The translations under genes and the position numbers were made by a program. A stretch of 64,000 bases of DNA, taken from Limnomonas spitsbergensis. Its lineage: Eukaryota; Chlorophyta; Chlorophyceae; Chlamydomonadales. Positions 22,888 to 64,000 of the stretch are shown here, one piece after another; the stretch's first letter is position 1; each line of letters starts with the position of its first letter. The DNA lies in contig JAYJMM010000037.1 of the NCBI GenBank assembly GCA_037349105.1, positions 2,852,001 to 2,916,000 on the forward strand, read 5' to 3'. The notes beneath the pieces are model-generated. The model did not search any database, was not told the origin of the DNA, and saw only the letters and a program-made list of their open reading frames with translations.

Positions 22888-25800
22888 TTATGCCTTCTTT
22901 GCGCCGTGGTAGAGCTCAATGTAGTCCAGGGCCGGGCGGTTCCAGCTCCAGTCCTGCAAGTATGGAAGGGCGCGGGCAAGCAAGGGCACAGGCAAGTAAG
23001 GGCTCAGATCTGGTGTTGGATCACGGACAGATCTGGCTCCGGGCGCAGGCAAGGAATTGCTCAAATCTCCAGTAGCATCACGGCTACATCTGGTTCAGGG
23101 CGACAGGAAGCAAGGGCGCAAGGCATGGACCTGATTCTGCATCGTGGTTGTTTTTCCAGAGGAGTTTTGCGCAAGCAAGGAGTGCTAGTAGTGCCCCTCG
23201 TCCTCCCCCCCGAAATACAACATGATGAAAATAAAATACACGAGAAGCAGAAGAGCAGCTCCTGTAGGAGGAGCGGTCAGCTGCTCCCCCTGCTGTCAGG
23301 TTGTACGGCCCCACGACCCAAACCGTCTTGGTGCCGACAATGCCAAACTCATGCGATCAAAACCATTTCCTCATGCAGTCAAGAGAGCTCAAGCCGATCA
23401 TTGTCAATGTATGCTGTTGTACCTCGCATCCATTGAATTCACTCCAATAACCCCAACCTCCCCCACCCTCTAGAAGGCCCTTCATACCTGCTCCATGACA
23501 CGCTTTTGCAGCCCGTGGAACCAGGCCCTGTCATTGTACCACGCATCGATGGCGCGATTCATTGCGTAGTCCAGGGAGCCCGTATCCATCCCCTGCGCAG
23601 GCAGTGATCAGGTCAAGTGAGCGCCCATGCAGCATCAAGCTACCTGACTACTGGAGAGGGACCCTGTCCATCCCCTGAGTGGACAGTGATGATGTCAAAT
23701 AAGGAATTAAGGACCCACATGCAGTGTGGCGTTACAGAGGTTCAGGAGCGGGCAGTGATGATATTAATTAAGGACCCATGCAGTGTGGCGTTACAGAGGT
23801 TCGTAGAGGGCACCTGTCCATCCCCTCATGAGTGGTGGTGAGGTCAAGTGAGGGACCATGCAGCAGGGAGCTACTCGAGTGCTGGCGAGGGACCGCGACC
23901 ATCCCCTCAATCCACCGAGCGGTGGAGCAAGAGTAAAAACGCCGAAGGCCTCAATAAAAGGGGGACCGAGGTGGAAACTGGTTGTTATTGCGGCGAAAAT
24001 AAGTATACCGGTGGCTCCGACATCCATTTTATTTGGAGCAGCTCGAAAAATGAGATTTCAGCACCCATATGCTGTGTGGAGCCTGCAGGAGCCCAGGACT
24101 GGGCCTGTGCTCATGGTTTGAGTAAGAAGCGTTGATGCACGGCAAAGTGAGGGTTCAGGGCATCTACAGTGTGCAACTGCAGGACCAACGATCGCAGGAG
24201 TGCATGAGAGTGTCTGTATCCACCCCCTGAGTGAGTCATGGTGCATCACAAGCAAGCGAGGGCCCATGCGGCATGGAGCTGCATGGGGTCAAGGATGAGC
24301 ACGAGCTCATGCCCAAACAGACATCATGCGCCCAAGGTGGATCCTTGGCAAGCTTTGGCACAAAAGTCTGTAAAAAGACAGCAAGCAGCCAGATGGATTC
24401 TGGGCATGCTTTCGCCGACACTTCAACTTGAACAGACGGAATCAAGTTCAAGTGAATTGTGGGCATGCTTTCGGCTGGCACTCTGTTTTAACAGGCAGCA
24501 CATACACACACACACACACACACACACGTGGACATGCCTCTGGTGCAATTTTATTGACTCCCACTGTCAGTGTAGCCCTCGTTGCCCCATTAAATGTATT
24601 GACATTCTGTAATGGGTCATTCAGCCCTCAAAATCACATTGATCCCCAAAAAACCGCTGCTCCTGCACCCCGCTGGAGTGCAGGGGGCCTCTGAAGGAGA
24701 CCCGCAGCCCAACAGGACCACGCCGTGAGCCATCTCCGAAGTGCAGTGTTAACCTTTACGGCACCGCCCCGTCACCCACTTGAAAATATAACAACCGTGT
24801 TGTTCACCCATGGCCATGACCCTAGCAATGCGCGCCGTAAGTCACCATGGTGATATAGGGTCCTGAACCTAACACACGAACAGCACTGGGCTAGGACTCA
24901 TCCCCAGAGTCAACAGTCCGAACCTGACACACCCCTACGGCACCGCGCCATTACCCACCGCAAAAGCGAACCCGTTGGTGGCATCGAGTCCGTCCCGCTC
25001 CCAATCCGAGGAGCCGTACACGTCCCAGGCGGCGCGTTCCTTGTCGAAATCAACGTCGAACACGGTATCCCTCAAACCACCCGTGTGCCTCACAATGGGG
25101 ACTGCACGAGATGCCAGGGGGGAAGGGGAGGATTCTAAGGGATAAGGGATAGTGTAATACCGTCATTATGGTGAAAAGGAGGGTGGAAGCTTAAAACGAA
25201 GGTCGAAGTTGAGTAAGCAGGAGTAAAAGAGGGCATCGAGCAATTGATGTCACACACAGTGCACCCCTGAACGAACTAAACAACCAATTCACCCACTACA
25301 ACCAACCAATCAGCTCTCCCTACCTGACCCGTAGCGCATGGCAATCATCTGCGTGAGGCCGCACGGCTCGAACGCAGAGGGCACCACAATCATATCACAC
25401 GCCGCGTAGATCAAGTGGCTGAGCGGCTCGTCATACTTGAAGCAGAAACGCGCCACATCGCCGCTGTATGAGTTGGCCAATGCATCGAACTCAGACTGAA
25501 GGAGGGAGTGGGGGGGGGTTACGGGGTTTGGGGTTCGGGGTGAGGGGTGCAGAGCCCTTGGCACGATTTTTTGCAAGGCAAAGGTGCAAGGAAGCTACAT
25601 CGCCGCTGTAACAGTTGGCCGGTTGGCATTAAACTCAGCCTGCCCCACTCTGGGGGCAGAAGGTCACATGGCAGGTCAACAGCAGGCCGTGAGCTTGCAA
25701 GGAAAGTGGGTGCAAGGAGCAACTCTGCCCACAACATGACGTCCAACCCAACCGGGCTTTTATTCTGAGTGGTCGGCGCACCCCTGACAGCCGTAACCCG

Positions 25801-28800
25801 GAGAGTAACAACCGCGGCCCAGCCGCTGTTGCGGACCACTCTCGCCCATCTCGCCACTGCATCCCCAGCTGCCCTACTCAACTGAATCCCCGAGTCCACA
25901 CACCTGTCCACGCACTTGTCTACACACCTGTCCACACACCCACCCACGCACCTGTCCACACACCTGTCCATACACCCATCCACACACCCGTCCATACACC
26001 CGTCCACACACTTGTCCACACACCTGTCCACGCACCTGTCCATACACCTGTCCACACACCCGTCCACACACGCACTTATCCACACACCCGTCCATGCACG
26101 CACCTGAACCTTGGGATCAGGCGCAGACCCCAGCAGCACAAACTGCCCTCCCCGCTCCACCGTCCGGAAGGCGGCGTGCTTGATAAGCGGCACTCCTTTT
26201 TGGGTCGTCAATCGGCTCACGACGCCCACCACAAACTTGTCTTCCCCCCAGCCACTCAGCCCGATGCGCTCGCGCAGCACCTGCGACCAACAAGGAGAGG
26301 AAGCAGCAGCTTTTGACGTCAGGTGAGGGAGATTGGCTCAGGCCCGGCCACTGCACAGGCTGCGTTGCACGTGCAGTTCCAGCGACGGACAACCAGGTCA
26401 ACATCAAGAGCAGGCGGCAAGTGTGCGCGTGGCAAGGAAGACTTGCCCAGGCTCCGGCCACCACCCAGGCTCCGGCCACCACCCAGGCTCTGGCCACCAC
26501 CCAGGCTCTGGCCACCACCCAGGCTCTGGCCACCACCCAGGCTCCTGCCACCACCCAGGCTCCTGCCACCACCCAGGCTCTGGCCACCACCCAGGCTCCG
26601 GCCACCACCCAGGCTCCGGCCACCACCCAGGCTCCGGCCACCACCCAGGCTCCGGCCACCACCCAGGCTCCTGCCACCACCCAGGCTCTGGCCACCACCC
26701 AGGCTCCGGCCACCACCCCGGCTTCTGCCGACCAGGTAAATTTTGCTTCGTTTTCCACTATTTTGATGGTACTTCCTCAACCAAGTTCAACGTCAAGAAC
26801 AGGCGGCAACTAGGCTAGCAGCAGGGAAGACTGGCGCAGGCTGCAGCCAACACCCAGGCTGCTGCTGACCAAGTTAACTGTGCATTGCCTTTATCCGTTT
26901 CGTGAACTTCTGCAACCAAGTTCCACATAAAGAGCAGGCAGCAAGTGGGCGTGAAGCAAGGTAAATCGGTCCCGGGTCCAGGCCTAGCCGCCACACCCAT
27001 GCCAACTGTTGCGATTTGAACTCCAGAGATCATGCCCCTACCCAGACACTAGGCACACCCAATACGACACCTCCTACCCCATGAACAAAACAGCGTCCAA
27101 AAGAGAGGGCAGGTCCAGGTAGCGACCGACCCTGTTTCTGCTGCAGCCTGGCCCTGTCCAACAAAACTGTTTTCAAAGGTGACGGGTCAAGGTCAAGGGG
27201 GCTTTACACGCAGACAACCTAAACTAGAACCCCAAGTCATATGGAACCCCCATCCTGCCTTGTCCTGTATCACACTCCGTCGTCCCAAATCCCAACCCAG
27301 GGCCCTGAATCGGTACCGAGTCATATAGCACCGACCTTGCGTGCAGCGGCCTTGCCCTGCACAACGTTGTTGGAGTTGTAGCCAAAGGGCAGGAACTGGC
27401 AGTGCTCAGGGTCCCAGAGTTCCGGGTCGATCCCGTTCCGGATGCCAATGAACTTTTGCGTCTGCGCAGAGATGACAGGACTGCCACCTGCAGCAGAAGC
27501 GGTACAGGGCTCGCAGGGGTCAGAGTTCAGGGACCTTGAAGGGAGTTGAGAGCCTCGGAGAGTGCCAGCCGGGGGTACACTGGTGTCAGGGCAGCGGCAG
27601 CAGCAGCAGCAGCAGTAGACAGAAGTTTGTTGTACACAAGTGTCAGGGCAGCAGCAGCAGTAGACAGAAGTTTGTTGTACACAGGTGACAGGGAAGCAGC
27701 AGCAGCAGCAGCAGCAGACTGCAGTTTGTGTACGCAAAGAGGTCAGCAGCAGCAGCAGCAGGCAGCAGTTTGCTTTACACAAGTGTCAGGACAGCAGCAG
27801 CAGCGAACAGCGGCAGTGGGGGGTAAGCAGGGTTTGGGGCTGGTGTAGTCTACTCTGCATCTGACAGTCGGGAGAGGACACAGACCATCGTGACACACTT
27901 TCCATGCCCCTACACTGTTCCCACCTCGATACACACATCAATGTTTTTGTGAGCCCAGTCTCAGTGCAGTGGCTGCCACTGGAGGGTCCAGTGGCAGGCT
28001 CCTGTGGGCTCCCAGTGGCAGCCCCTGGTGGGCCTAGTGGCAAGCTTTGGTGTACATCCCGCAGAGCAGCAGGAAATGTTTGGGAGGGATTCCACTCGAC
28101 TGCCCACGGTCGGAGCGGGGCAAGAGGGTCGTCCCTCGGGACACACGTGCTTAGCCATGGTGTGGCGTCCTTAAGCGGGATGTAAGGGGAGTCCCAGCAA
28201 GCCATAGCCGCAATCCTCGAGCCTCCTACCTCTCTGACCGTCAGACTTAGCTCTGCACTGGCAGGTGTGGACCTCAGGTCACACAAACTCCGAAACCCTG
28301 AATCCTCCCACCCAACCACCAGAGCGTGTGTTGACCTCCGATCACCCGGCCCCCCCTGCCCCCCTCCTTTCCTCTCTTCCTCCATGCTCCTCACCTGTCT
28401 CAAAGGCGTAGGTGGGCGACACTGTTGTGAACTTCTGGCAGTAGTACGCCGCCTCTGAGATCTTCCGCTGTCCGTAGTTAAGGTTGTGGATAGTGAAGAC
28501 CACTTTGGGGTTCCAGAGCCCGTTGGGGTGGTAGTCCTCCCAGTACGTCTGAAAAAAATAAGAGGCAGACAATTAATACATGCATGAGTGGGTGGGACGT
28601 GGGACGTTGTCGTGATGGCACAGTGTTCAAAGCAAGGAGAAAGGCCCGTTGGGATTGTGGTCCCCCTAATACGTCTGGGGGTAAAAACAAAAACATGAAA
28701 ATACATGCACGAGTGTTGTTCTGTTGACTTGTTGGCAGTTTGGCACCGCATCGTAAGCAAGGAGTGAGGCCCGATGGGGTGGTGGCCCAATGGCAGTCCT

Positions 28801-31800
28801 CCCAAAACGTCTACAAAGGAAAACATATACACGGGATTTTTTACATGCATGAGCGGGTGGGCGAAAACTGGGCAAATTAATACGTGCATGAGTGGGTGGG
28901 ATAGTGACTTGTTGGCACAGCATTAAAAGCAAAGGGAGAAGCCTCCTGGGGTGGTAGCCCTCCCAGTCTGGACCCGGCTCTGTAGGGTGGGCGAGTTTTT
29001 TCCATCTATTTGTGACCATCAGCAATCAGGCTTGACATATTTTGGTATTCTGGCCCTCTCCCGAACGATCCGGGCAAGCATGTCAGAATGAAGTATGGGT
29101 GGGGGCAGACTGAGTCAGGTACGAGCTGCGGATAGGGTGCGAAGTGCAGGTATGTGTGTGTTGGGGGGGGGGGCACCCTTCGGGCATTGCTGCTGCAATA
29201 TTAAACCATAGCTGCGTAAACCGTGGATCAGTTTTGGGCATCAGCGGTCAGAGCCCTCTCTATTTGCCCCCCCTCTCTCTCTTGCATACCTCGACTCTTA
29301 TACAATGGACCAGTCTTGGGCATCAGTGGATAGAGCCCTCTCTATTCGCCCCCCCCTCTTTTGCATACCTTGGCTGCGTCTACAGAAGATCAATCGTAGG
29401 CATCAGCAGCGGGTCAGAGCCCCTTGTCTATTCAACCTCCCCCCCCCCTGCTTTGCATACCTTGGCTACGTATGCAGTGGACCAGTCGTGGCAATGCAGG
29501 ATATCCGGCTGGCGGTTGGTCCGCAACAGAAACTCAAGGGAGGCCTTGCAGAAGAAGTCGAATCGGACCTGAAGCAACGCAGCCATTATACTTCATCGCA
29601 CATCATCACAGTAACAGCATGGAAGATAAAAAAATAAACAGAGCACATTCAGAGGATGCAAATCTGGCCAAGCAGCAGAACTTATTATTGTAGCTGCGTG
29701 GGGGCGCTGCTAGAGTATTGGGTTTGCCCTGTGGCGAATCCGGGGGGATCAGGGGGCACTATCGCCTACCACTGCAACCAGGTGTGGGGGTGGTGCCGCT
29801 AGAGTATTGGGTTTGCCCTAGGGCCAAAGCCGGAACGAGGATCAGGGGGGATTGTCGCCCACCACTGGAACCAGGTGCGCATACGCTCATGATTACTTGG
29901 GTCGTTTACTCTTCCAATTTGCTTTCCTTTAAAAACAGCCGTTCATCACACTTCTTCTGAGCTGCATGGCGAGTAATTGGTATTGCTTCACAGCTTAAGG
30001 TTTATTAACTTGGCGTTTAATAAAACCTGCAGCGTTCATAGACTTCTTGTCACTGCCATCATGTATCTACGACAAACCCATCTGAGGGCTGTGCGGCATT
30101 TAAACGTTACAGCTGCACACACAGGTAGTCTACAAACACGACCGCGCCATCATCAACCAAGCGTGAAGTGCTGAAGAGTGAGGGTCGCCAGGAGTACTAA
30201 AGCGGGGCCTGCTGGGCCACCAAACCAGCCCTATCCATTGAGTTGGACAAGATCATGTCTCATTCATGAAGGGTCCATTTGTCCATATGGACAAATGGAC
30301 CCTTCGCCAGTACACCGCCACCGCCGGATCCACCGCTTCTGTCCCATCCTTTTATGTTAATTTCCATCCTCTCCCCCATACCCTCCCCATCTCATGCCTC
30401 CTCCTCGCCCTTCTCTGCCCCTGTCTTGCACCACCTTTTGTCCAATCGACCATCTCCTCCTCTCCTCCTCCTCCATGCCTCCTCCTTTCGTACTCCCCCC
30501 CTCTCCTTCCCTCCCAGTCTCACTCTCTCCCTTAATCCCCCCCCCCCCTTCCCTCCCCCATCCTTTACCTCATCATCATGCTGCCCATACAACAGCTGCA
30601 TGTCAAAGAGGGCCATTCTCGTCCCTTTTACTGCCTCATCCCCTTCCCCCACCCACCTCTCCCTAACCTCATCATCATGCTGCCCATACAGAGCTGCATG
30701 TGGAAGTGGACTTCCTCCAATTCTCGTCTCTTCCTCCTCTCCCCTACCCTCCCCTCATCTGTAACCTCATTATCATGCCGCCCATGCAAGAGCTGCATGT
30801 GAGAGTGGCCATTCTTCGATTCTCATCTCTCCCCTCCCCTCCCCCCATCTCTCACCTCATCATCATGCCGCCCATATACCGATTGCGTGTCGAAGAAACC
30901 GTTCTTGGGTTCAATGAGGAACACCCGCAAGCCCTCCACCACCGCTGACACCACGTACACCTTGGTACCGCCCCAGTCAAACTCGGTTTCGTACTTCATC
31001 TGGCCCGACAGGATCGGGCTCGACTTGAAGAACTGGTACCTGTTTGGTGGGAGGGCGGGCCAGGCGACACTCTTAGGGTTCCTCAAATCATGCAGTACAC
31101 CCGACAATCTTGATCTCTCAACGACGCCGTAACTAAAACATTACACAAAAGGTTGACGAGCCAGGAGCTCTAGCCGGAAGAGAACCTGCCGGACGCAACA
31201 CAAAAAGAGTTGACGATCCATGAGGACCGGCCTTCAGCAACACAAGGGCAGTAGGGTAACTCACATAGGTAGCAGCACTTCGACCAGGTGGCCTTGGTCC
31301 TGCACCGCCCGTCCAAGGGCTGTCACAACATCCCCCAGGCCTCCAACCTGGATGACAGGGATCGGTAATGAGGGGGAGTATGTGTCAACATGGGAGGGGA
31401 TGGTGGTGTGGAATAGTGGGAGCTCATATAGAAAGAGGGGGGAAGGGTCATAGGACTAGGGATCAAAATAGGGTGCGTATGGATCAAACTAGGGGGAGTG
31501 TGGAACTATATATCGACTTTGGAGGGAGCACAGATCCACCAACACAACCATATGATCCTTCAACCCATACCTCTGACCCACATCTCCCTTCCCACATCAC
31601 CCCATACCCCTTGTCCATTATGCCTATCCCCTGGCCCCAATCCCCGTACCCGAGCTAAAATCTCCTAGTGCCTACACCTGATCTTCCAGCATCCCCCCCA
31701 CCCCCCCCGGTCATACAGCTTATCCCCCTGGCCCAATCTGCACCTTGGCCACCGGCGCCATCTCCACAGCGATGTGCACCACATACAGGCTGGGCTCACT

Positions 31801-34800
31801 GACCTGCATCCATAAGTGGGAGGCGGCGTGGGGTAAGCGCATCAGCAACGCGGGTGACATGCAGTTGGAGAGGTCAGTGTGCGCAGATATGCAGCCCCAC
31901 CCATATAGCCATTTCCAGAGTCTCCGGTCTTGAGACAGCGCGGTGAGGGCATGCACAAGCTTGATGGCCAGCATTTCAATAAACGAGCCAGCGTTCATCA
32001 GTGTGTCACAGCAAATAGGTAACGGGTGAGGGTTGGTGGGTTATGTGGTCAGCGTCGGCTTTGATGTGGACATCATTTAGGTTCTGGGGGCAATATGGAG
32101 TTAACGGGAAGGGGGCTTATAAGCATCAGGGTCACACCCACTCGTGAATCCTAGTTTGAGCCCAGCCTTGAGGCTCCACCACTTACAACCACCCGGGGGC
32201 CGACAATCCACGTCCAGGAATGTGGTACAGTTGTGGTAGTCCAGTACTAGTGTAACGTCGGACAAGCAGTGCAGCCACAAATGCGCAAGAATGATTTGTG
32301 TGCGGTACAAGTAGTACATACGGCTTGCAACGCGCAGGCAATGTATCGGTCACGTCTCTATACCCGACACTCACCTTAGACCGCAGGTGATAGCTGCAGC
32401 AGCCACATTTCGCTACACAAGACAGCAAAGCATTCCAGCTATCCTCCCACCCATCATCCCAGGCTGGGGCTCCCATCCCTGCCTGAGATTACCGCTGACT
32501 GCTCCACAGACAGGTTTAGGGTTTTAACCCGACACTCACCGCTGACTGCTCCACAGACAGGTTAAGGGATTTAACCCGGCACTCACCGCTGACTGCTCCA
32601 CTGGCAGGTGGTAGTCGTACCCGCCGCGGTTGTCGTACGTCCCTTCCCCGCCCTCCACGTCTGAGAAGACAAAGTCCATCTTGAAGGCATCCAGGGGAAT
32701 CTTCACGACGGCCTGTGATAAAAATGGTTTGGGTCATGCGAGGGTTTAGGCCACTGTGTGTAGGGCTTCAGGTTCACGCGGGATTTTAGGCTGTGGGGTC
32801 TTGGGTCGCAGGGTTCAGGGTCACGCAGTTGAAGGCTGCAGGGCCTTGAGTCGCAGAATTCAGGGTCATGCAGTTTAGGGCTGCAGGGTCTTGGGTCGCA
32901 GGGTTCAGGGTCATGCAGTTGAAGGCTGCAGGGTCTTGGGTCGCAGGGTTCAGGGTCATGTAGTTGAAGGCTGCAGGGTCTTGGGTCGCAAGGTTCAGGG
33001 TCATGCAGTTGAAGGCTGCAGGGTCTTGGGTCGCAAGGTTCAGGGTCATGCAGTTGAGGGCTGCAGGGTCTTGGCCTCCAGGAAGTTAGGCTGCAGGATC
33101 TTAGGAGCTGGAAGCTTGTCACAAGATATAACGTTTCGTCAGACCCCAAGAGTGTTGAGCAGGCCCCTCAGTGTACCACGCTCTGCAGAGCTGTTCCCAC
33201 AGGCGCCCCATGTCCTGATACTCAATCCTGCATGCACCCGCTCGTAAAATATAAATACAAGCGGCACCGAGTTTTAAATTTGGGGGGCCCCAAACCCGCC
33301 CCCTCCCCTGTCACGGCCCTCACCGTGAAGTGCGACTTGCCCGGGGCGGGTGCCGTCATCTCGATTGGGCCAAACGGGCGCGGGTGGCTCCACCTGTGCA
33401 GGTTGCAGGGAGAGAGGAAATATATAAATAAATCAATACACCCTGGGGCGTGAATTAAGAGAAAGAGGAACAAGAACTCTTTGGACCGGAAAACTGATTT
33501 ACTGAATATTAAAAAAACAGATTGCACCCCCTTGCTATGCGGTGATCAGTCAATCCTCCCCCCTAGTCCCTACCTCGCTTTCCCTCTCCATTTATCTCTC
33601 CCCGAGCCACCTCCGATCCTCCCTGCCCCCACCTGTTTCATCTGCCCTTTACACATGGTATCCCGCCCATCAAGCAGCCCACATGTTGTAGTTCAACTTG
33701 ACATCATAATTCCCCACCCCCTTTCCTTTCCCTGCCCTCCCCTCTCCCCACCTGTTCCACCCGCCCTGGATGAATACGCGCTCCCGCCTGTGGAGTGGCG
33801 TATTGTCCCAAATGTTGTCGTTCAACTTGACATCATAATTCCCTCCCCCTTCCCTTCCCCTGCCCTGCCCTCTCCCCACCTGTTCCACCCGCCCTGAATG
33901 AATACGCGCTCCCGCCCGTGGAGTGGCGTGTTGTCCCGCGGGTTGTAGTACACCTTGACCTCACTCCCTGCAGTCACCACCTCGGGCTCCGTGTACAACA
34001 CGTGGCGGACCTACACAGCATACCAAAGATATACCGGTTGGAAAAAGTGTGACAAGAGTGAACACTTCGGGCTCCATGTAAAGCATATAAATATCCTGCA
34101 CAGGATGGCCCCGTGAGAAGGGCTGGGTGACAAAGCGTAGATAAGGATAAGTCCTTCTGCCATTGGCAGGTAGAGGCAATGCTTTTGGTCTGCGAGTTTG
34201 GTTGTTTTGGATTGAGAAGTATTTGGACAGGACAGAAAAGCATAGGAATGACAACTGGGGACCAAATCAAGCACCTCAGGCTCGGTGTAGAGCACGTGGC
34301 GAGCCTGCACAGAGAGGCACATCAGTGTACGACCTGTACCACCACACAACCATCAATGTGGGACGAGGCATACGTGGGTGGGACGAGTGGTGGACACACG
34401 TGGAAGGGGATGACGGGAACAACAGGGGTGACAGTCACGGCTCACAAGGAACTGGGTGGCAGGAACGACAAAAACAAACAGGTGACGCTTAACACCGCCC
34501 TGTGACATCCTCTTCTCCTCAGGAGTTAGCAGAACAGCGGACAGATGCTATACCGCCGCATTCCCCCCTCCCTTGCTTCCCCACCTTGCGTCTCTCCACA
34601 GTCTTGACGAGCGCCTGCGCCTCCCGCCGCTGGGCCTGCCGGAATTCTTCTTTGCGCCGCTCTTCGCTCTCTGAGGAGCAGGTAAAAGTCCAGGGTTCAT
34701 GTCTGGAGTCAGGGTTCATGGCTCCGGAGTCAGGGTTCAGGGCTAGGAAAAAGAAGGGCTGCGGGTGAAGGGTTATGCATCGCACCTCTGGGCCTGCCAG

Positions 34801-37800
34801 GCATCAAATTTGTCCACTCCTCTCTCTCTGAAAAACAGATAAGAGTAACCCGGGTTTATGGGTCCAGGTTTAAGCTATGAGTTTCAGGGTTTCAAAGGGT
34901 TTCATGAGGTGTAGAGCTCGGGCTTAACAAGAGGCCAAGATTGAGGCCAGAGAGGAGGCTAGTCCAGCAGCATTGCACCCTGCTCGTGATGCCCATGCCC
35001 CATGCGTGAGGGAGATGAGACAATGGTGCATGAAAAGGGGAGGAGGCAGAGTCCAGAGGTGCGGCCGAGATCTAGGGTCTCAAACGGTGCCCCAAGACTC
35101 CCCAATGGGTTGCAGGAGTCTAGAGCTCGAGGATAAGCGTATTTGGTCTTGCGACTGACGTAGAGGGCGGCATGCCATATTGAATACTCTCAGTGAGCTA
35201 TATCTCTCTGTACCACTCACCCAGCCATGTTCCCCCTAAACCCATAACCCGGCTTTGTTTCCAAGTTCCCTCCTCTAACCTCCTTTCCCTCCAGAGCTTT
35301 CCCTGCACCCCTTCTCCAGCTTGCTACCCTGTATATTCACTCCGGGGGTGCTGCCCTTTCCCAGCTCTGTATCCTCCCTCAAGGCTTGCTATCCCTATAT
35401 TCTCCATCTGGCTATGTATCCCTGTATCCCTCATCCAGCTATGTTTCCCTGGATTCTTGATCCAGAGATGTATCCCTGGATTATCTTTTCACCTGTCATT
35501 CTCTGCATCCCTCATCCAGCTATGTTTCCCTGCATCCCTCATCCAGCTATGTTTCCCTGGATTCTCGATCCAGCGATGTTTCCTTGTCCCTCATCCAGCT
35601 ATGTTTCCCTGGATTCTCGATCCAGCGATGTTAACCTGCATCCCTCATCCAGCTATGTTTCCCTGGATTCTCGATCCAGCGATGTTTCCCTGGATTATCT
35701 TTTCACCTGTCATTCTCTGCATCCCTCATCCAGCTATGTTTCCCTGCATCCCTCATCCAGCTATGTTCCCTGCATCCCTCATCCAGCTATGTTTCCCTGC
35801 ATCCCTCATCCAGCTATGTTTCCCTGCATCCCTCATCCAGCAATGTTTCCTTGTCCCTCATCCAGCTATGTTTCCCTGCATCCCTCATCCAGCTATGTTC
35901 CCTGCATCCCTCATCCAGCTATGTTTCCCTGCATCCCTCATCCAGCTATGTTTCCTTGTCCCTCATCCAGCTATGTTTCCCTGCATCCCTCATCCAGCTA
36001 TGTTTCCCTGCATCCCTCATCCAGCTATGTTTCCTTGCATCCCTCATCCAGCTATGTTTCCCTGCATCCCTCATCCAGCTATGTTCCCTGCATCCCTCAT
36101 CCAGCTATGTTTCCCTGCATCCCTCATCCAGCTATGTTTCCTTGTCCCTCATACAGCTATGTTTCCCTGCATCCCTCATCCAGCTATGTTTCCCTGCATC
36201 CCTCATCCAGCTATGTTTCCCTGCATCCCTCATCCAGCTATGTTTCCCTGCATCCCTCATCCAGCTATGTTTCCCTGCATCCCTCATCCAGCTATGTTTC
36301 CCTGCATCCCTCATCCAGCTATGTTTCCCTGCATCCCTCATCCAGCTATGTTTCCCTGCATCCCTCATCCAGCTATGTTTCCCTGCATCCCTCATCCAGC
36401 TATGTTTCCCTGCATCCCTCATCCAGCAATGTTTCCCTGCATCCCTCATCCAGCTATGTTTCCCTGCATCCCTCATCCAGCTATGTTTCCCTGCATCCCT
36501 CATCCAGCTATGTTTCCCTGCATCCCTCATCCAGCAATGTTTCCCTGCATCCCTCATCCAGCTATGTTTCCCTGCATCCCTCATCCAGCAATGTTTCCCT
36601 GCATCCCTCATCCAGCTATGTTTCCCTGCATCCCTCATCCAACAATGTTTCCCTGCATCCCTCATCCAGCTATGTTTCCCTGCATCCCTCATCCAGCTAT
36701 GTTTCCCTGCATCCCTCATCCAGCTATGTTTCCCTGCATCCCTCATCCAGCTATGTTTCCCTGCATCCCTCATCCAGCTATGTTTCCCTGCATCCCTCAT
36801 CCAGCTATGTTTCCCTGCATCCCTCATCCAGCTATGTTTCCCTGCATCCCGCATCCAGCTATGTTTCCCTGCATCCCTCATCCAGCTATGTTTCCCTGCA
36901 TCCCTCATCCAGCTATGTTTCCCTGCATCCCTCATCCAGCAATGTTTCCATGCATCCCTCATCCAGCTATGTTTCCCTGCATCCCTCATCCAGCTATGTT
37001 TCCCTGCATCCCTCATCCAACAATGTTTCCCTGCATCCCTCATCCAGCTATGTTTCCCTGCATCCCTCATCCAGCAATGTTTCCCTGCATCCCTCATCCA
37101 GCTATGTTTCCCTGCATCCCTCATCCAGCTATGTTTCCCTGCATCCCTCATCCAGCTATGTTTCCCTGCATCCCTCATCCAGCTATGTTTCCCTGCATCC
37201 CTCATCCAGCTATGTTTCCATGCATCCCTCATCCAGCTATGTTTCCCTGCATCCCTCATCTAGCTATGTTTCCCTGCATCCCTCATCCAGCTATGTTTCC
37301 CTGCATCCCTCATCCAACAATGTTTCCCTGCATCCCTCATCCAGCTATGTTTCCCTGCATCCCTCATCCAGCTATGTTTCCCTGCATCCCTCATCCAGCT
37401 ATGTTTCCCTGCATCCCTCATCCAGCTATGTTTCCCTGCATCCCTCATCCAGCAATGTTTCCCTGCATCCCTCATCCAGCTATGTTTCCCTGCATCCCTC
37501 ATCCAGCTATGTTTCCCTGCATCCCTCATCCAGCTATGTTTCCCTGCATCCCTCATCCAGCTATGTTTCCCTGCATCCCTCATCCAGCTATGTTTCCCTG
37601 CATCCCTCATCCAGCTATGTTTCCCTGCATCCCTCATCCAGCAATGTTTCCCTGCATCCCTCATCCAGCTATGTTTCCCTGCATCCCTCATCCAGCTATG
37701 TTTCCCTGCATCCCTCATCCAGCAATGTTTCCCTGCATCCCTCATCCAGCAATGTTTCCCTGCATCCCTCATCCAGCTATGTTTCCCTGCATCCCTCATC

Positions 37801-40800
37801 CAGCTATGTTTCCCTGCATCCCTCATCCAACAATGTTTCCCTGCATCCCTCATCCAGCTATGTTTCCCTGCATCCCTCATCCAGCTATGTTTCCCTGCAT
37901 CCCTCATCCAGCTATGTTTCCATGCATCCCTCATCCAGCTATGTTTCCCTGCATCCCTCATCCAGCTATGTTTCCCTGCATCCCTCATCCAGCTATGTTT
38001 CCCTGCATCCCTCATCCAACAATGTTTCCCTGCATCCCTCATCCAGCTATGTTTCCCTGCATCCCTCATCCAGCAATGTTTCCCTGCATCCCTCATCCAG
38101 CTATGTTTCCCTGCATCCCTCATCCAGCAATGTTTCCCTGCATCCCTCATCCAGCTATGTTTCCCTGCATCCCTCATCCAGCTATGTTTCCCTGCATCCC
38201 TCATCCAGCAATGTTTCCCTGCATCCCTCATCCAGCAATGTTTCCTTGTCCCTCATCCAGCTATGTTTCCCTGCATCCCTCATCCAGCTATGTTTCCCTG
38301 CATCCCTCATCCAGCAATGTTTCCCTGCATCCGCCCTCTGGCTCATCCCTAACGGTCCCAACCCTACCTGCCGCCATACGTGTGTGGTACAGCTCCTCAA
38401 AGAATTTCTCCCCCAGGAAGTCTGCCCAGGCGCCTATATTCATGCCATCGGGAAGGGAGATCTGTCCAGGCAGAAGGAGGGGGAGGGGAATAATCACAGT
38501 GTTACTATGTGAAGCTAGTTTCAAGCTTTATAAAACAAAACTCCCCCGCCTGAGGTCTTGGTGGTTGATGGAATAGAAGCAGCCGTATCTCCTTCATAAG
38601 TATTTCATATATGATATCATGACAATGGGACACTGAAACACTTAATGGCATTCGAGTTTCCTAGAAAAGACAAACCTGGCTCACTCACCATCAGGCCTTT
38701 TTCTTTCCCTCATGAACGCACCTTCATTGTGTAGTCCTGATAGTGGATGAAATGCAGGCAGCCCTGTTTTCTTATCGAGTATGTCATGCAACATGTGATG
38801 ACCGGTGGACAATGAATCTTGGATTATTTTTTAATGAACACAAACTGGACTGATGAACCATTCCCGGCCTCTCCCCGCCCCTCTGGCATCTCCCGGTGGT
38901 TGATGGCAACTATTTTTCCCCTCAGTATTTCAAACTTGATCTCCTGACTGGTAGACACAGAGTCTTGAAGATTTTTTAACTACCATATCCAACTCGTTAA
39001 TCCTTCCCAACCTCTCCCCCCCCCCTCTGGCATCTCCCGACTCCCCAGGCACGCGCCTTCATCTTATGGTCTTGATGGTTGTTGTTGTCGTAGTTCTCAT
39101 AGTAGTTGATGACGAAGTCAATGGCCACCGCCTCGACCGGAACATCGATCTCAGCAGTCCACCAGTCCGAACCGGGAGCAGCCTGGAAATAGGGATAGGG
39201 AAGGGTGTAGGGGAGGGCGGGCAAGTCTTATGCCGAGGGGAACCCAGATTGAAAATCGACCCTGCAGTATCTCGAGGGCAGGCCATCATGCAGCGAAATC
39301 TAACATCTTGTTCTTTCATGTTTAGCTTGGCTTATGGTCGGGGGCGTCTGAGACCATTGGCGAAGGATTACGGAGGGTACAGATTGAAGGCCCTAACCCT
39401 GTCGGACAAAAGACGATGGGCGTGCAACACACATGTTCAAAAGCTACAGCAGGGAAATGTCATGCTTGACACCTCATAAAGGGGCCTGTCACTAGGGGGG
39501 TCGGACTAGTCCCCCGGCACCCCCCCAACTGATAATGCGACCCCATGGTTTGCGCCTTGGCAAACGGAAGAATCGACTGGCGTCCAGGACTTAAGCCATG
39601 GAATACAAAATGGAGCACCGATTTTTTTCCTCGTCGATTCTTCCTTGTGCTAAGGCGCCAACCGGGCATTTAAATCCCCTGTTTTGGGGGACTGGTCCGA
39701 CCCCCCTAGTGACAGGCCCCTTACCTCATACCCCTTCAGGCAAAACAGTCTGGAAATGGAACGGGCATGTTGAAGCTATATGCAGCATAACTACCATCCA
39801 CACATTTTGAAGTGGCCCCACGGCCCCCACTCAGCCTGAAGCCCTCGCTTTACCCCCATTTCTCTACCTCAAACGAGTTGCTGCAATCTCTACAACCGCC
39901 AGCCCATCCTACCTCTCTAACCTCCCCAACCATACTACAAACCCTGAACCCTCCAGCCATATCCTCTCTCCTTTTCTCCCATGGCCTCCCCCCACTTCCC
40001 CACCCGTGTCCCCTCCTCTGCCTGCACTGCAGCTGAATTTCAGAAAACAAATAGAGCCAAGCAATTGCGCCGTAAAACAGAATCAAGGAGGTCATTATGG
40101 TTTTGGTGGTTTTGTTGTTGTCCTAGTTGTCAAAGTAGTCGATGACGAAGTTAATGGCCACCGCCTCGACTGGAACATAGATATCAGCTGTCCACCAGTC
40201 CGATCCGTAAAAGTAGCTAAACTTGCCTTGAAATTTCGGTGTTTGAATGCTAAGCTCCGTAATCCACTCACCGTTATCAGCACAGCACTGAAAACACCCC
40301 CTCTCACCTTCGATGCTGCCGCGTCCCGCTTCAGCTCGGCAACTGATGCCTTCTGCCACGCATTGAATCCGTACCGCAGCGTCAGAGTCTGGTCGGCGGG
40401 GATACCCATGTTGGCCAGCGGGCCAACTACACTGTTGTACTGCAGCTTCACCTGCAGTACATGCAGTACATCCTGCGTCAACACCAAACAACCACCCCCA
40501 GAGTTATGCATGCGCCCTGGGATTGAAACAGGTCAAGGCAAGGCCTGGCATTTCACTACACGAGCATGGGCTTAACCCCAGCCCTTTTAATACCTCACAC
40601 GCGTAGTCAGGTGCACACACTCGCGACAGCTAGACCCCGTCAGTCGGCCCCATCCCCCCGCATGGCCCCTCCATAAGGCGCACATCAAATACCCACCCAT
40701 CCATACACTGCTGCAGGAGGTCCCCCGCACCTTTGTTCCTGCCTTGGGTTCAGCAGGCGACGCCTTCCACAGCACGGGCTGGTTGCGGTCCCCGTTGACA

Positions 40801-54870: not shown

Positions 54871-54879
54871 TAATCTTAC

Positions 54880-55800: not shown

Positions 55801-55814
55801 CAACCAGACGATTG

Positions 55815-55905
55815 GGGGCCCATGCGGCCAAGCCATTTTAAGCAGGGCCCTCAAGTCCATGATGTAACACCCCTGGGGCCTAGGCCCTGCTAATATTTGG
55901 CCAAC
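55815..55905. repeat. Family A repeat copy
   Basis: CATGCGGCCAAGCCATTTTA, then GATGTAACACCCCTGGGGCC. Diverged member with both half-modules close together. Confidence 0.65.
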
Positions 55906-56397
55906 TGTAAATTGCTCAGTTCAGTTGAGAAGTGCTTGCATCTAGTTTCAAGGCAAGTGGATGGCACACAATCACACATCGTCACATCCCATGTACTGGG
56001 ACCAGTAGATTAGGGGGGGCAGTTCTTAGTTTCGTTAAACATAAAAAATAAAATGCGAAATTCGTCATGCCGCAGCGGAGCAGCATCACTTCAGGTGGTC
56101 CTCAACCACACACAAAGAAACTTAGCCTCCATCCGCATCACATGCCGTCCAGAGGGTCCGGAATCCTCCAAGATTAAAAGCTCAACTAGGCTTGTCACTC
56201 AACGCTACTCCAGCATGTTGGCCCGCGATGCATGCAGATCAACCCCTAAAAAGCAAGCAGACACTGGCAAGCAGATACGGTTGGTAGTGATTCAGGGTGT
56301 CAGCAGGTAGGCCTGCTGATCCCAGAACTGAAAAGCTTGGCCCTGGCTGAAAACCGCGGGCCAGGGCCAGGCAGCTGTCTTGAGGCGGCTGAGCACT

Positions 56398-57450: not shown

Positions 57451-57459
57451 TTTGGTGGC

Positions 57460-59030: not shown

Positions 59031-59036
59031 ACCAAG

Positions 59037-59649: not shown

Positions 59650-59930
59650 TGTAAGCTGTGGCTTCAAGGGAGGTAAGGAAGCAGGAGCGGTGTACCTGCC
59701 TCGTTAACCTGCAAATTGAGAGGGCAACGAGGGGGAGGTCATTATGCACGTCGATACTTAAAAAAGCTAAGTCGGCACGCACCTGGCTTGGTGTCCACAG
59801 TATTTTCAAACTGCACGAAACTGACAAGTGACGACGTATATAGGAGGCCACGGCAGGCCTGCCACTTACGTTTTACTCGCCACTGGGTCGTCTAGAATCC
59901 GGACAGAAGGAGGGTCGCATATAGTTAAGT
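59650..59930. promoter_or_regulatory. Divergent intergenic region between SERF copy 2 and Trm10
   Basis: A 281-bp interval between two outward-facing start codons. A GTATATAGG TATA-like string lies at 59,836-59,845, reading toward the Trm10 gene about 90 bp before its ATG. No other element assigned. Confidence 0.45.
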
Positions 59931-62900
59931 ATGGATGAAAGCATTGTGCCAAGCAGTGTCATTGAGGAAGTCAAGTCACAGGTGTGAATGTGTCTTGTGG
60001 CGGTGACGTTGGCATAGCTGCTGAGACAAGGAAGCCCCCGTCGACCTTTGCGCGTGCCCTCTATGCAGGATGATGCCAACGAAAATGCCGGAATGTCCAA
60101 GAACCAGATGAAGAAAACGAAAAGGTTGGCAAGGTGAGAGCTGAGGGCCGCATGGCAAGTAGCAGGACTCCACTCACAACAGCACAAACTCATGTCCATG
60201 CCCATGGGCAACTGACGAGGCCATCATTTGCATGAAAAATTTGATTTTTGTGTCTGACAGGATGGAGGAGAGGAAGGCTGAAAGACGAGCCGAGGAGAAA
60301 ACAGCCAAGAAGAAGCAGAAACTGGTCCGCAAGGAGGAGATTGACAAAAAATTGGAGCTTATGTCTGCAGAGGAAAAGGAAGCCTTCCGTAAGGAACGGC
60401 AGGTATGCCACATGAAGGGCAGGGGTTGGGAGTGAGGGAGATCAAATTATGATGAACCCTACGCACAACTGCACAATGCACGATGCTCTGAAGGGTGAAA
60501 ATTCCGTGGTATTATGTAACAGTAGGGCTTGCTGAAACCTGACCCCTCAGCCATACGCTGTGCATCCTGTGATGTAGCTGAATTACAGCTGACCTACCCT
60601 AAAATAAATAGTGGCCCTGGGCAGCCAAGCTGTCCTAAGCCCTCCCCCTCCAACATTGAAGGGACAGCCATATGTCTAGACCTACCAACACGGCTATATC
60701 CAAGTCTTCTCATTCCATTGATCCTTCAGAAGACAGGCACCCTGCTCCTGTTGGATCGGCCTGATTGAACTCCTACTACAGTACCCCAACTTACAGATCT
60801 GTGACTGATGCAGGACGTTTTGGAGGAGAGGCGGGGAGACCACGTCAATAAGCGCGCCAAACTGGAACATGCCCAGAAGTCCGGACCTGACCTCGTGATT
60901 GACCTGGACTTTCAAGGCCTGATGACTGCCAGCGAGCTCAAACACCTCTGTCAACAGGTAGCGGGCACTGGGCAGTGTAGAAGCAATGGAGGGCAACAGA
61001 GGATATGGGTCAGAGGGGTCAGTCGGGTCACGCACCTCTCTTCAAGTGGGGAGGGGAGGGGGAGGGGTCACCAACATGGCTGCGAGGGAACTCAAGCACC
61101 TCCGCCAATATGGTGCGGACAGTGTTGAGACACCAGGGGGCAACAGAGGGGATGATTCAAAGGGGTCAGGCATCTCTCTGCAAGTGGCGGGGCTGCCTGC
61201 TGTGAGGAGGGTCACTGACAGGGCTGCCAGGATTCTCAAGCACCTCTGTCAACAGGTGATCTGTGTTGGGGCACCAGGGGGAAGCAAAGGAAAAAACGTC
61301 ATAAGGGCCATGCACCAGTCTGCAAGTGGGGGGGGCTAAGGGAGAAGGGTCACAAACATGGCTGCTAGATAGCTCAAACCCCTTCGTCAACAGGCAAATG
61401 ACAGGGCCGGGGCAGCAGGGGAGAAGAATGAGTCTGACAGTATTTCTTCAGTGCGCACCAGACCACCCTAGACAGGCGGCTGGGCAGCCATCACTGGCCC
61501 CCCTCAATCATAGCTTCATTGGCCTTGATACAGCTGTATTGTAGCAGGAGTGCGCTTACATCAAGTGAGGTTGGGCTAATGTCTGCTATGTGGTGGGGGG
61601 TCTGATAATTGGTGGGCAGGGACGTGCAGATATCAGGAAAATGAGTGTATGATTGAGGCCCGTTTGCAAAAGGGCTAAATATCCCGCAAAAAAATGTATG
61701 AAAATAGACCCTACAAAACCAAGATTAGGGGCTTGAATGCCGATGCATTTGAGCAGGCAGCCTGCTGCTCAGCCCCCGCTGCCCCAGTGCACATCCGCAT
61801 GCACCTTGGTTCCTAGTGTAGCTTAGTGTACGAGTTCCCTGCCATCAGCCAGAACACTCAACACTTGATTTGGTCTTCTAAAAGCATGGAATCCCCTGCC
61901 TCTTAGCCCCTTCGTTGCAGGTGCAGGGCTTTGGCTGTTACCAAAGGGTTCAACTAAAACCTGGACCCTTTATCCTCAGTCCAGGATAAACGCATGGTTA
62001 CCGGTATATAACCTGAAAGTCTACCCACGCCTGGCGGCTGACATACTTGGCGGTTGGGGATAAGATATACTTTGAACCCTAGACCTGGGATAAAAACTTC
62101 GTTGTCGACCTGACGACCTTAGAAGGCTTGCATCTTCTGGAGGCCCACCTGATCTCCTATGGGCGGTGCAGCTTGTCATTTTGTGCTCTGCCAACATTTC
62201 GGCCGCCTGCTGCCCGTGCAGCTAAGCTATTCATACTCTGCCAACATCAAAGCTCCGAAGCCATGCCACCTGCACCTGGTTGGGTACAAGGGAGATGTCA
62301 AGGCGATGGGGGATGCACAGATCTCAGGTGTGAATGAAGCGAGGGGCAGATCTCTGGTGGGAATAAGGTGGGGCAGATCTCAGGAGGGAAAGAGGTGTAG
62401 AGCATGCCTGTCTGAGGTGAGGATCAGCGGCATATATGATGACGCAGAGCAGGCGGCAGTGCTTATTTATAGCGCTTCCGTCTACCTTTGACAGGTCGCT
62501 GAAAAGCCACCAATGGGCCCAAGGGGATGAAACCTTGACACCATCATGTCGGGTTACACAAGTAGCAGTGGTTACCGCTCCAGGCCCTCACGTGTGTCGG
62601 CCGCCATGTAGCTGACTTGTAGCTGAAGCATGCTGAAAATAAACAGTGGCATGATTCTGATCCGTCGGCAATGCTCGACTGGAACAGGGGGTGTCCGTGG
62701 CCGAGAGGAGGATAAGGAGGGGGTCTGAGTCCAGGCTATACTGACCAGGGGCAATGAACCCTTGTATTTGAACCCATGGTGCGGTGTGTGAGTCCCACAC
62801 AATGCTTACATGGTTTGAAATGCAGCAGGTAACTTCTCCGAAGTCACCCTTGCTCATTGGCTCATTACTGAGTCTTCGTTGTTTTGTGCTGAGGTCACCC

Positions 62901-64000
62901 TTGCTCATTGGCTCGTTGCTGAGTCATTGATGTTTTGTGCTGAGGTCATCATAGCTTGTTGCCGAGTCACCATTGTTATTTGCGGATGTCACCTTAGCTT
63001 ATTGCTGAGATATCATTGTTTTGTGCTGAGGACATCATAGCTGATTTCTCTGCCACGATGAGAGCAAGGGCAGGCCCTTGATTGGAGCGATGCCCTCATT
63101 TCCTTTGTACCATTAAAATTAAATTTTGAATACCTTGCGTTTGCAGGACTCCCCAACTGGGTGGTGACTCAGACAGCCAGCACCTATGTGGAGCACTTTG
63201 CTGCCCGGCGGGACAAGATCGTTTATTTGACGGCGGACTCGGAGACCGAGCTTGATGAGCTCCAGGATGACAGCATATACATTATCGGCGGTCTGGTGGA
63301 TCACAACCGGTGAGCGAGACGGGCGGTTTTTCGTGGATGCGGCTTTTGTTTGCGTGGCTTGTTGTTGCTGTTGCTTTTGGTGGCGCGATCGGCGGTTTGG
63401 TGGACCACAACCAATGAGCAGGGCGCTGCTGCTTTTTTTTGCTGTGGCTTTTGGTTGCCGCTGTTTTTTATGGCTGTATCTTCAGGTGACTGCGGCTTAT
63501 CGTTGGCCTGGTGGTCCACAACCAGTGAGCCGAGTGAGGATGCTTTGGTGGCATTAATTTTTGTTAGAGGACCAGAACTGGTAATCGCCGTTGCGCTTGG
63601 TTGCTGTTGCTTTTGGTTGCTGTAGCTTTTGTTGGCCTGGCGGACTCCAACCGGCGTGCAGGTCTTTGGTGGCAGTTATTTTGTTGGACAAAGACTAGTG
63701 AGCGCTGTTGTTTTTATTGCTGTAATTTGTTAATGCACGAGGACCCTCCTAAAGCAACAAAGGTGCACTATTTATTTGACTTTGCTTCAGCTACAATTCA
63801 ACTACATCACGGCCCTTTGGCCGTGGATGCCTGGTGCAGAAGGCTTTGCTGTCCGGACTAGTGGCGGCAGGCTTGTCACCGTTTTTTCTCCAGGAGCACA
63901 GTGGTGGCCGCTCGGGAACCTCCAAAAGGTGGTCCGCAGTGCACTGAAATAAACACAGCTGAGGTGATTTTTTTCGGCTGTTGCATCCGACAGATACAAG
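59931..64000 (+). CDS. TRM10: tRNA (guanine(9)-N1)-methyltransferase, Trm10 family; 3' end outside window
   Basis: Methylates N1 of G9 in tRNAs using S-adenosylmethionine (SPOUT fold, nucleus/cytoplasm). Exons: 59931-59981, 60069-60133, 60261-60402, 60814-60957, 62222-62327, 63147-63309; 223 codons plus 2 nt, continuing beyond 64,000. All phases match. Landmarks: MSKNQMKK and a long Lys/Glu-rich N-terminal helix (residues 25-85), DLVIDLDFQGLM opening the SPOUT domain, LSYSYSANIKAP, ISGLPNWVVTQ, then KIVYLTADSETELDEL and IYIIGGLVDHNR. The GGxVDxNR Asp is the residue implicated in catalysis in yeast Trm10. Exon 2 could instead end at 60,124 (three codons shorter, same phase); the downstream AAG|GTGAGA donor is stronger. 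The C-terminal part of the SPOUT domain is missing only because the window ends. Confidence 0.94.
60958..61400 (+). repeat. Trm10 intron 4: three copies of exon 4's 3' edge
   Basis: The exon end GAGCTCAAACACCTCTGTCAACAG|GT is re-used at 61,089-61,113, 61,228-61,255 and 61,371-61,394, about 140 bp apart. The second keeps a perfect CAACAG|GTGATC donor; the third has CAACAG|GC. Intervening intron DNA (GGGGCACCAGGGGG-like) is copied too. Confidence 0.93.
62125..62221 (+). repeat. Trm10 intron 4: copy of exon 5's 5' edge
   Basis: GTGCAGCTTGTCATTTTGTGC followed by CTCTGCCAACATTTCG (62,166-62,200) repeats the exon start and its acceptor (GTGCAG|CTAAGCTATTCAT to CTCTGCCAACATCAA) about 53 bp further upstream. 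Confidence 0.85.
62328..62420 (+). repeat. Trm10 intron 5: copies of exon 5's 3' edge
   Basis: The exon end GCACAGATCTCAG|GTGTGAATG recurs as GGCAGATCTCTG|GTGGGAAT and GGCAGATCTCAG|GAGGGAAAG at 22-30 bp spacing. Confidence 0.85.
62835..63050. repeat. Tandem repeat, about 50-60-bp unit
   Basis: TGCTGAGGTCACCCTTGCTC and ATTGATGTTTTGTGCTGAGG-type units repeat three to four times in Trm10 intron 5. Confidence 0.8.
63310..63710 (+). repeat. Trm10 intron 6: at least three copies of exon 6's 3' edge
   Basis: The exon end coding IIGGLVDHNR with its GTGAGC donor is repeated at 63,384-63,419 (still IGGLVDHN, donor AATGAGC), 63,493-63,530 (IVGLVVHNQ, CAGTGAGC) and 63,625-63,655. A remnant lies near 63,690. 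Period is about 107-110 bp. Confidence 0.92.
63785..63962 (+). repeat. Family B repeat copy
   Basis: GCTACAATTCAACTACATCA and GGTGGCCGCTCGGGAACCTC, with an AAATAAACACAG tail. A related 5' part occurs at 56,797-56,850 (GCTACAATTCACCTACATCA). Confidence 0.5.

What the first reader, a model, noticed from the sequence alone, without database searches (positions are those of the whole stretch)
22888..63710. Introns grow by tandem duplication of exon edges, splice site included
In two unrelated genes the DNA next to an exon is a ladder of copies of that exon's own end: last or first codons, the donor or acceptor, and some intron. Examples are SS3 exons 6, 8, 10, 11, 12, 14, 16, 17 (both ends), 19, 22, 23, 24 and 29, and TRM10 exons 4, 5 (both ends) and 6. 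Copies always lie on the intron side. They are most similar beside the exon and decay with distance, as if new units are added at the boundary. Periods range from about 22 to 200 bp. This is seen directly and recurs too often to be chance. I know of intron gain by tandem duplication of AGGT-containing segments, but not of a genome-wide polarity of this kind. Inference: a replication- or repair-linked process acts at exon/intron junctions, or selection tolerates only duplications outside exons.
Basis: partly seen in the sequence, partly recalled or inferred. Interest (0 to 1): 0.93.

Follow-up and report, generated by a model that had tools for sequence, protein, structure and literature searches.

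The report
Duplicated exon edges inside algal introns
In a snow alga, introns carry many head-to-tail DNA duplications, and because these fall almost anywhere, about three in ten of the exon ends examined have a copy of themselves, usually with the splice site, in the neighbouring intron.

Summary
The exon-edge copies are real. Using homology-supported gene models, 47 of 157 exon ends in 16 genes carry a recognisable copy in the adjacent intron. Controls are near zero: inverted intron 1 of 157; other introns 1 of 540 tests on 135 of those ends. The genome fits Limnomonas spitsbergensis.

The polarity is not established. Intron positions have copies nearly as often: 568 of 2213 (0.257) against 0.299 at junctions; strict scoring 0.199 against 0.210. 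Nearest copies are not reliably the best (14:10). A junction-blind simulation, its rate set by hand, gives a broadly similar profile.

Best explanation: tandem duplication is frequent throughout introns. Duplications straddling a junction leave the exon intact and put the extra copy in the intron, where it is presumably spliced out. A 1.2-1.5-fold junction excess remains at the relaxed threshold, unresolved.

The surprising part is tolerance: at 18 of 109 ends a copied splice site scores at least as well as the genuine one, and copied splice dinucleotides are no more eroded than flanking bases. No RNA was available, so splicing was not tested.

The parts
22891..45227 (-). SS3 (starch synthase III-type) gene, 23 modelled exons; further 5' exons probable upstream
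   Evidence: Spliced alignment to P0002, exons 39182..22891; ab initio extension (coordinates); Pfam starch synthase catalytic domain and CBM53
42735..42788 (-). Copy of SS3 exon 3 end + donor (edge 42887); a second copy at 42555-42610
   Evidence: identity 0.76 and 0.71
42029..42087 (-). Copy of SS3 exon 4 start (edge 41925); second at 42175-42210; splice dinucleotide not intact in either
40963..41022 (-). Copy of SS3 exon 5 start + acceptor (edge 40852); further copies 41084-41136, 41213-41275
40186..40207 (-). Distant copy (about 1 kb) of SS3 exon 7 start (edge 39182)
   Evidence: the open frame around it resembles exon 7
38706..38749 (-). Copy of SS3 exon 7 end + donor (edge 39057); the copy has GT where the modelled genuine site reads GC
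34809..34859 (-). Copy of SS3 exon 9 start + acceptor (edge 34670)
34275..34312 (-). Copy of SS3 exon 10 start + acceptor (edge 34010)
33722..33781 (-). Copy of SS3 exon 10 end + donor (edge 33880), identity 0.93, unit 128 bp
32510..32554 (-). Copy of SS3 exon 12 end + donor (edge 32587), identity 0.93, unit 47 bp
30545..30785 (-). Ladder of three copies of SS3 exon 15 end + donor (edge 30856), identities 0.90, 0.92, 0.89: no decay
29267..29397 (-). Two copies of SS3 exon 16 end + donor (edge 29461)
28645..28677 (-). Copy of SS3 exon 17 start + acceptor (edge 28548); farther copy of the exon part at 28947-28967
25608..25642 (-). Copy of SS3 exon 20 start + acceptor (edge 25495)
24752..24798 (-). 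Copy of SS3 exon 21 end + donor (edge 24959)
23657..23703 (-). Copy of SS3 exon 22 start + acceptor (edge 23592)
60261..63309 (+). TRM10-type tRNA methyltransferase gene, three modelled exons 60261-60402, 60814-60957, 63147-63309; model incomplete, gene continues past the window
   Evidence: sequence, splice-site scores, Pfam PF01746 on the stitched exons
61082..61429 (+). Ladder of three copies of a TRM10 exon end + donor (edge 60957); the second copy is more similar (0.84) than the nearest (0.72)
63388..63551 (+). Two copies of a TRM10 exon end + donor region (edge 63309)

Best explanation
Introns of this alga lengthen to a large extent by frequent tandem duplication of segments mostly some tens to a few hundred bp long, placed with little regard to splice sites. 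When a segment happens to straddle an exon/intron junction, the tandem product is exon-edge|intron followed by a second exon-edge|intron. The exon-proximal splice site stays in use, so the mRNA is unchanged and the extra exon edge is spliced out with the intron. Duplications inside exons change the protein and are removed. The result looks like a ladder of exon ends on the intron side. Shown here: the copies, their direct orientation, their frequency in 16 genes, near-equality (within about 1.5-fold) of junction and intron-interior rates, absence from exon interiors, higher frequency in longer introns, no extra erosion of copied splice dinucleotides. Inferred: that the exon-proximal site is the one used (from protein homology, not RNA), and that the duplications arise by ordinary slippage or unequal exchange.
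For: Direct copies at 30 of 87 ends (29 of 87 in the rerun), inverted 0 of 87, other introns 1 of 348. Kinesin genes chosen by Pfam match: 6 of 48 ends, inverted 0 of 48, introns of other genes 0 of 192. Random-stretch genes before any extension: 14 of 38. Profile over 157 ends: exon -100 nt and deeper 0 of 276, -60 9 of 148, -20 38 of 157, junction 47 of 157, intron +60 to +420 between 0.22 and 0.30. A junction-blind simulation with full acceptance gives 0.34 at the junction, 0.27-0.31 in the intron; half acceptance gives 0.17 at the junction (rate set by hand to match the intron level). Ends with copies by intron length: 2 of 26 (<350 bp), 9 of 50, 13 of 31, 10 of 26, 13 of 24 (>1300). Splice dinucleotide identity in copies 46 of 54 donor and 63 of 69 acceptor bases, against 0.83-0.85 for flanking exon bases and intron bases from the seventh on. 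Assembly from PacBio reads with L50 33 kb plus Illumina polishing.
Against: Paired within introns, junctions exceed intron positions at the relaxed threshold: 0.329 against 0.224, 95% interval of the difference 0.029 to 0.179; the simulation gives -0.01. At the strict threshold 0.231 against 0.171, interval -0.012 to 0.131. A modest junction preference is not excluded. The simulation reaches deeper into exons than observed (at -40 nt 0.15-0.28 in three full-acceptance runs, against 0.13) and makes fewer multi-copy arrays at junctions (0.07-0.13 of ends, against 19 of 87). Rates differ widely between genes (0 of 6 to 6 of 8 ends), so introns are not all alike.
Confidence: 0.75

Rival explanations
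1. Junction-targeted duplication: a process tied to splice sites (for example co-transcriptional R-loops or breaks at exon/intron borders) adds units at the exon edge, so the boundary is a hot spot and copies are youngest next to the exon.
For: Paired junction excess 0.329 against 0.224 at z>4; in introns of 350-600 bp, 9 of 50 ends against 42 of 692 intron positions; nearest copy best in 12 of 18 multi-copy arrays in the first set. Tandem repeats were reported more often toward intron ends in 31 plants and algae, especially in two green algae (PMC3887541, passages and one section read).
Against: Unpaired strict count 0.210 against 0.199; near-flat profile; ordering by distance not significant with all 157 ends (14:10); intron interiors about equally rich.
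Confidence: 0.15
2. The copies are functional: alternative donors or acceptors, or splicing regulators retained by selection.
For: Many copies keep an intact splice dinucleotide (88 of 105 copies counted, at most 12 per end).
Against: Retention is like that of neighbouring bases, as expected without selection; offsets show no preference for multiples of three (34, 32, 39 for remainders 0, 1, 2; copies within an array are not independent). No RNA was available.
Confidence: 0.06
3. Remnants of intron gain by duplication of AGGT-containing exon segments, or of introner-type elements.
For: Tandem genomic duplication is an accepted source of introns (PMC3443670, passages read).
Against: Most copies carry exon end + splice site + adjoining intron, a segment that spans an existing junction, not an exon segment with AGGT. 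Units were not shared between introns in 540 random pairings, one excepted; this is a limited sample.
Confidence: 0.03
4. Assembly artefact.
For: Tandem arrays can be mis-assembled; raw reads were not available here. Some arrays outside the window have near-identical units (GCP and HisD extensions).
Against: In SS3 and TRM10 the copies are 0.71-0.95 identical over the aligned part, so not simple duplicates of one read; PacBio reads with L50 33 kb and Illumina polishing; copies at junctions on nine contigs.
Confidence: 0.01

Closest known systems
Intron gain by a tandem duplication that crosses an intron-exon boundary, potato RdRp gene (PMC4974935; abstract read)
   Same: A tandem duplication spans an existing intron/exon junction and copies splice signals and exon edge
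   Different: There one event gave a new intron; here many events appear to leave the exon set unchanged and only lengthen the existing intron
Tandem genomic duplication of AGGT-containing exon segments (review PMC3443670; passages read)
   Same: Tandem duplication supplies duplicate splice-site sequence
   Different: The source segment there is exonic and the product is a new intron; here the source spans an existing junction and no intron gain was seen
Tandem-repeat enrichment in introns, highest in Chlamydomonas reinhardtii and Volvox carteri, with more repeats toward intron ends (PMC3887541; passages and one section read)
   Same: Green-algal introns rich in tandem repeats, more near intron ends
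   Different: The parts read do not mention exon-edge copies or duplicated splice sites; in this alga repeat content is near flat along the intron
Minisatellite polarity (human minisatellites; recalled, not read)
   Same: Array with a fixed end and claims of directional growth
   Different: Directional growth could not be confirmed here

Membership tests
Passive tandem-duplication lengthening of introns | Copies in direct orientation | tested here: met
   Direct 47 of 157 ends; inverted 1 of 157 (0 of 87, 1 of 22, 0 of 48)
Passive tandem-duplication lengthening of introns | Duplication frequency at junctions no higher than at random intron positions | tested here: inconclusive
   Unpaired z>6: 0.210 against 0.199, z>4: 0.299 against 0.257; paired z>4 excess 0.105, interval 0.029-0.179; paired z>6 interval -0.012 to 0.131
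Passive tandem-duplication lengthening of introns | Longer introns carry more duplication | tested here: met
   Ends with copies 0.08, 0.18, 0.42, 0.38, 0.54 by rising length class; intron positions 0.15, 0.06, 0.33, 0.24, 0.47, so not strictly monotonic
   14:10 at junctions, 129:143 in introns, Fisher p=0.39; the first 87 ends alone gave 14:4 and 13:5
Intron gain by AGGT tandem duplication | Duplicated unit is exonic and the intron lies between two AGGT copies | tested here: not met
   Most units include existing intron sequence beyond the splice site (median intron part 21 nt in 47 arrays)
Introner-like mobile introns | Same unit shared between unrelated introns | tested here: inconclusive
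   1 of 540 random pairings matched (1 of 348, where the other intron could be of the same gene; 0 of 192); no all-against-all search
Alternative splice sites | Copies used in transcripts | not testable with these tools
   No RNA data held

The most novel reading that the evidence does not exclude
In this alga tens of thousands of exon ends (extrapolated from small, partly biased samples) are followed by copies of their own splice site, many as strong as the genuine one, yet duplication of a splice junction carries almost no fitness cost; the splicing machinery must therefore choose the exon-proximal copy by exon-side context rather than site strength, at donors and acceptors alike. In addition, junctions may be mild (1.2-1.5-fold) hot spots of duplication.
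Probability: 0.25. Interest if true: 0.75.

Novelty: new variant of a known kind. Interest (0 to 1): 0.5.

Why it matters
It offers a natural experiment with many replicates on how the spliceosome chooses between two similar sites tens to hundreds of bases apart. It also shows a simple route by which introns can lengthen (tandem duplication that is then spliced out) and a trap for gene prediction: in two genes my ab initio models took a copied exon edge for an exon (pyruvate kinase, a kinesin). If junction-spanning duplication is really tolerated without cost, duplicated splice sites are a large standing supply for new alternative exons.

Tried and rejected
Junction-targeted growth as the main cause: rejected on the near-flat profile, with a small excess left open. 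Directional decay: the 87-end set suggested it (14:4 and 13:5), the 157-end set did not (14:10). Selective loss of decoy splice sites: not seen (copies whose alignment does not reach the splice site are not in that count). Shortage of long exon parts in the copied units, as a sign of selection or targeting: exon parts are shorter than in the simulation (median 27 against 42 nt), but intron parts are shorter too (21 against 38) and the exon share is 0.60 against 0.52, so probably an effect of indels on ungapped extension. A first simulation under-sampled long exon parts and was replaced. Rfam and tRNA scans of the window: nothing. Paper searches showed no report of pervasive exon-edge copies in introns; only the listings were scanned, six papers were opened in part, and the library is open-access only.

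Rows dropped or chosen by hand: the first two blocks (tiny, spurious); short or unsupported ab initio exons, the upstream SS3 candidates included; L002 (AT-rich), L004 (virus-like) and L015 (retroelement-like) as gene sources; L014 genes other than the TRM10 exon; L005, L009, L012, L017, L018, L019 (which overlaps L003 by 3 kb) and others without clear models; the TRM10 last-exon acceptor; the first two exons and the acceptor before the third in kinesin L023; the donor of the first L027 exon was moved by hand and the start of the first L026 exon is uncertain. Four of 52 kinesin ends had under 150 nt of target and were not tested. The HisD and GCP extensions (L020, L021) were chosen after those genes had shown many copies, so they bias upward (11 of 22); the kinesin set was chosen for compact genes, so it biases downward (6 of 48); random-stretch genes alone give 14 of 38 and the window's two genes 16 of 49. 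HisD and GCP count once each in the 16 genes. In some searches two TRM10 edges were 1 nt off; corrected from then on. Offset-0 lines are self-matches. The gene predictor was trained on SS3, so its recovery of SS3 exons is not an independent test.
Full report
IDENTITY. The window is G000:C37:2852001-2916000 of a 260.2-Mb assembly in 124 contigs. Contig C41 has 10,736,355 bases. The published Limnomonas spitsbergensis genome has 260.248 Mb, 124 contigs and a longest contig of 10.736 Mb (abstract, passages and two sections read). The total differs by about 21 kb, so the name is an inference, a strong one. It is a snow alga of the Chlamydomonadales, assembled from PacBio reads (L50 33 kb) with Illumina polishing.

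GENE MODELS. An ab initio predictor trained on them returned 15 of the 17 exactly with final settings (not an independent test) and extended the gene to 45227; starch synthase catalytic and CBM53 domains confirm the identity. TRM10 exons were read from the sequence; Pfam gives tRNA (guanine-1)-methyltransferase. In random 10-kb stretches on other contigs the predictor gave genes with Pfam support: mitochondrial carrier, gamma-tubulin complex component (GCP), b561, histidinol dehydrogenase, AMP-binding enzyme, bile-acid symporter family (8 of 10 proteins matched a family) and pyruvate kinase. Seven kinesin genes were added by Pfam hit. That makes 16 genes.

TEST. For every exon end a 40-base probe centred on the junction was aligned to up to 600 bases of the adjacent intron and compared with dinucleotide shuffles of that intron. 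30 of 87 ends score z>4 and 20 of 87 z>6 (29 of 87 at z>4 in the rerun). The same probes against the inverted intron give 0 of 87, and against other introns 1 of 348. Extending two genes gave 11 of 22, with 1 of 22 inverted. Kinesins gave 6 of 48, with 0 of 48 inverted and 0 of 192 against introns of other genes. Together 47 of 157: window genes 16 of 49, random-stretch genes 14 of 38, extensions 11 of 22, kinesins 6 of 48. Both window genes and 8 of the 14 others have at least one such end.

IS THE JUNCTION SPECIAL? The probe was slid from the exon through the junction into the intron. Rates at z>4 over all ends: -100 nt and deeper 0 of 276, -80 3 of 122, -60 9 of 148, -40 21 of 156, -20 38 of 157, junction 47 of 157 (0.30), then 0.22-0.30 from 20 to 420 nt into the intron. 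Summed over intron positions from 60 nt on, 568 of 2213 (0.257) at z>4 and 440 of 2213 (0.199) at z>6, against 0.299 and 0.210 at junctions. Paired within each intron (143 ends), junctions give 0.329 against 0.224 at z>4 (interval of the difference 0.029 to 0.179) and 0.231 against 0.171 at z>6 (-0.012 to 0.131). In the kinesin set alone, junctions 6 of 48, intron positions 40 of 504, exon interior 2 of 189. So tandem duplication is a property of the whole intron; a 1.2- to 1.5-fold junction excess remains possible. Part of it may be detection, because the exon side of a junction is conserved and older copies stay recognisable (inference).

SIMULATION. A model with uniform tandem duplication, deletion and substitution, exons conserved, wholly exonic duplications rejected and junction-spanning ones accepted gives 0.34 at the junction and 0.27-0.31 in the intron; its duplication rate was set by hand to reach the observed intron level. 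Accepting half gives 0.17. A second parameter set gives 0.25, 0.13 and 0.06 at the junction for full, half and one-fifth acceptance, with 0.21-0.27 in the intron from 100 nt on. The observed near-equality of junction and intron fits full acceptance. With observed intron lengths the simulated paired difference is -0.01, below the observed one. The simulation overshoots inside exons and undershoots multi-copy arrays, so it is a sketch and not a fit.

POLARITY. On 87 ends the nearest copy scored above the second in 14 of 18 or 13 of 18 decided arrays. With all 157 ends the count is 14 to 10; intron arrays give 129 to 143. Correlation of identity with distance is weakly negative in both (median -0.26 in 17 junction arrays, -0.17 in 246 intron arrays). 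The claimed decay is not established.

INTRON LENGTH. Ends with copies: 2 of 26 in introns under 350 bp, 9 of 50 at 350-600, 13 of 31 at 600-900, 10 of 26 at 900-1300, 13 of 24 above 1300; intron positions 0.15, 0.06, 0.33, 0.24, 0.47. A longer intron offers a longer target, up to 600 bases, so part of the trend in the shorter classes is mechanical, and the trend is not strictly monotonic. The mean of the 81 introns is 783 bp, against 788 bp published.

DECOY SPLICE SITES. 41 of 109 ends have a junction-spanning copy; 38 of these keep GT, GC or AG in at least one copy, and at 18 of 109 a copy scores at least as high as the gene's own site on a matrix built from the same genuine sites (kinesins not included, and the two repeat-rich extensions are). 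Copied dinucleotides match the original at 46 of 54 donor and 63 of 69 acceptor bases, like the flanks (87 ends). Donors and acceptors are hit alike (21 and 20). Offsets show no codon periodicity, so use of a copy would usually break the frame. Which site is used was not tested; the contiguous protein alignment of SS3 favours the exon-proximal one.

LITERATURE. A boundary-crossing tandem duplication is reported in a potato gene, where it made a new intron (PMC4974935, abstract read). AGGT duplication is the classic tandem route to introns (PMC3443670, passages read). Introns are the most tandem-repeat-dense regions in two green algae, with more repeats toward intron ends (PMC3887541, passages and one section read). 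The nine searches listed under Tried and rejected showed no report of pervasive exon-edge copies.

VERDICT. Real, recurrent and far above chance; mostly explained by indiscriminate tandem duplication plus the removal of introns by splicing. The tolerance of copied splice sites is the part worth following.

Noticed in passing
35411-38332: A 27-bp unit repeated about 109 times (93% matches) fills most of one 3.7-kb SS3 intron.
   Followed up: no
43014-44163: About 36 copies of a 32-bp unit containing TTTAGGG-like motifs inside an SS3 intron; may be degenerate telomere-like sequence (resemblance recalled, not tested).
   Followed up: no
39057 (SS3 exon 7 donor): The modelled genuine donor reads GC while its intron copy 335 nt away has GT; the ab initio model chose another donor there.
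   Followed up: partly
L004 (G000:C14:500001-510000): Long open frames without clear introns and almost no tandem duplication (1 of 60 probes); looks like integrated large DNA virus sequence (from recall). Two of three frames searched match lectin-type Pfam domains and none a virus-specific family.
   Followed up: partly
L002 (G000:C3:500001-510000) and L007 (G000:C23:500001-510000): Tandem throughout (60 of 60 probes each); L002 is only 36% GC against 54% for the genome.
   Followed up: no
L013: A second pyruvate kinase gene seems to start just downstream of the first: two tandem copies (by reading the predicted proteins).
   Followed up: no
L026 reverse strand 2660-2744: The gene predictor called a kinesin exon that reads as a copied exon stretch in an intron, an example of how these copies mislead gene prediction.
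   Followed up: partly
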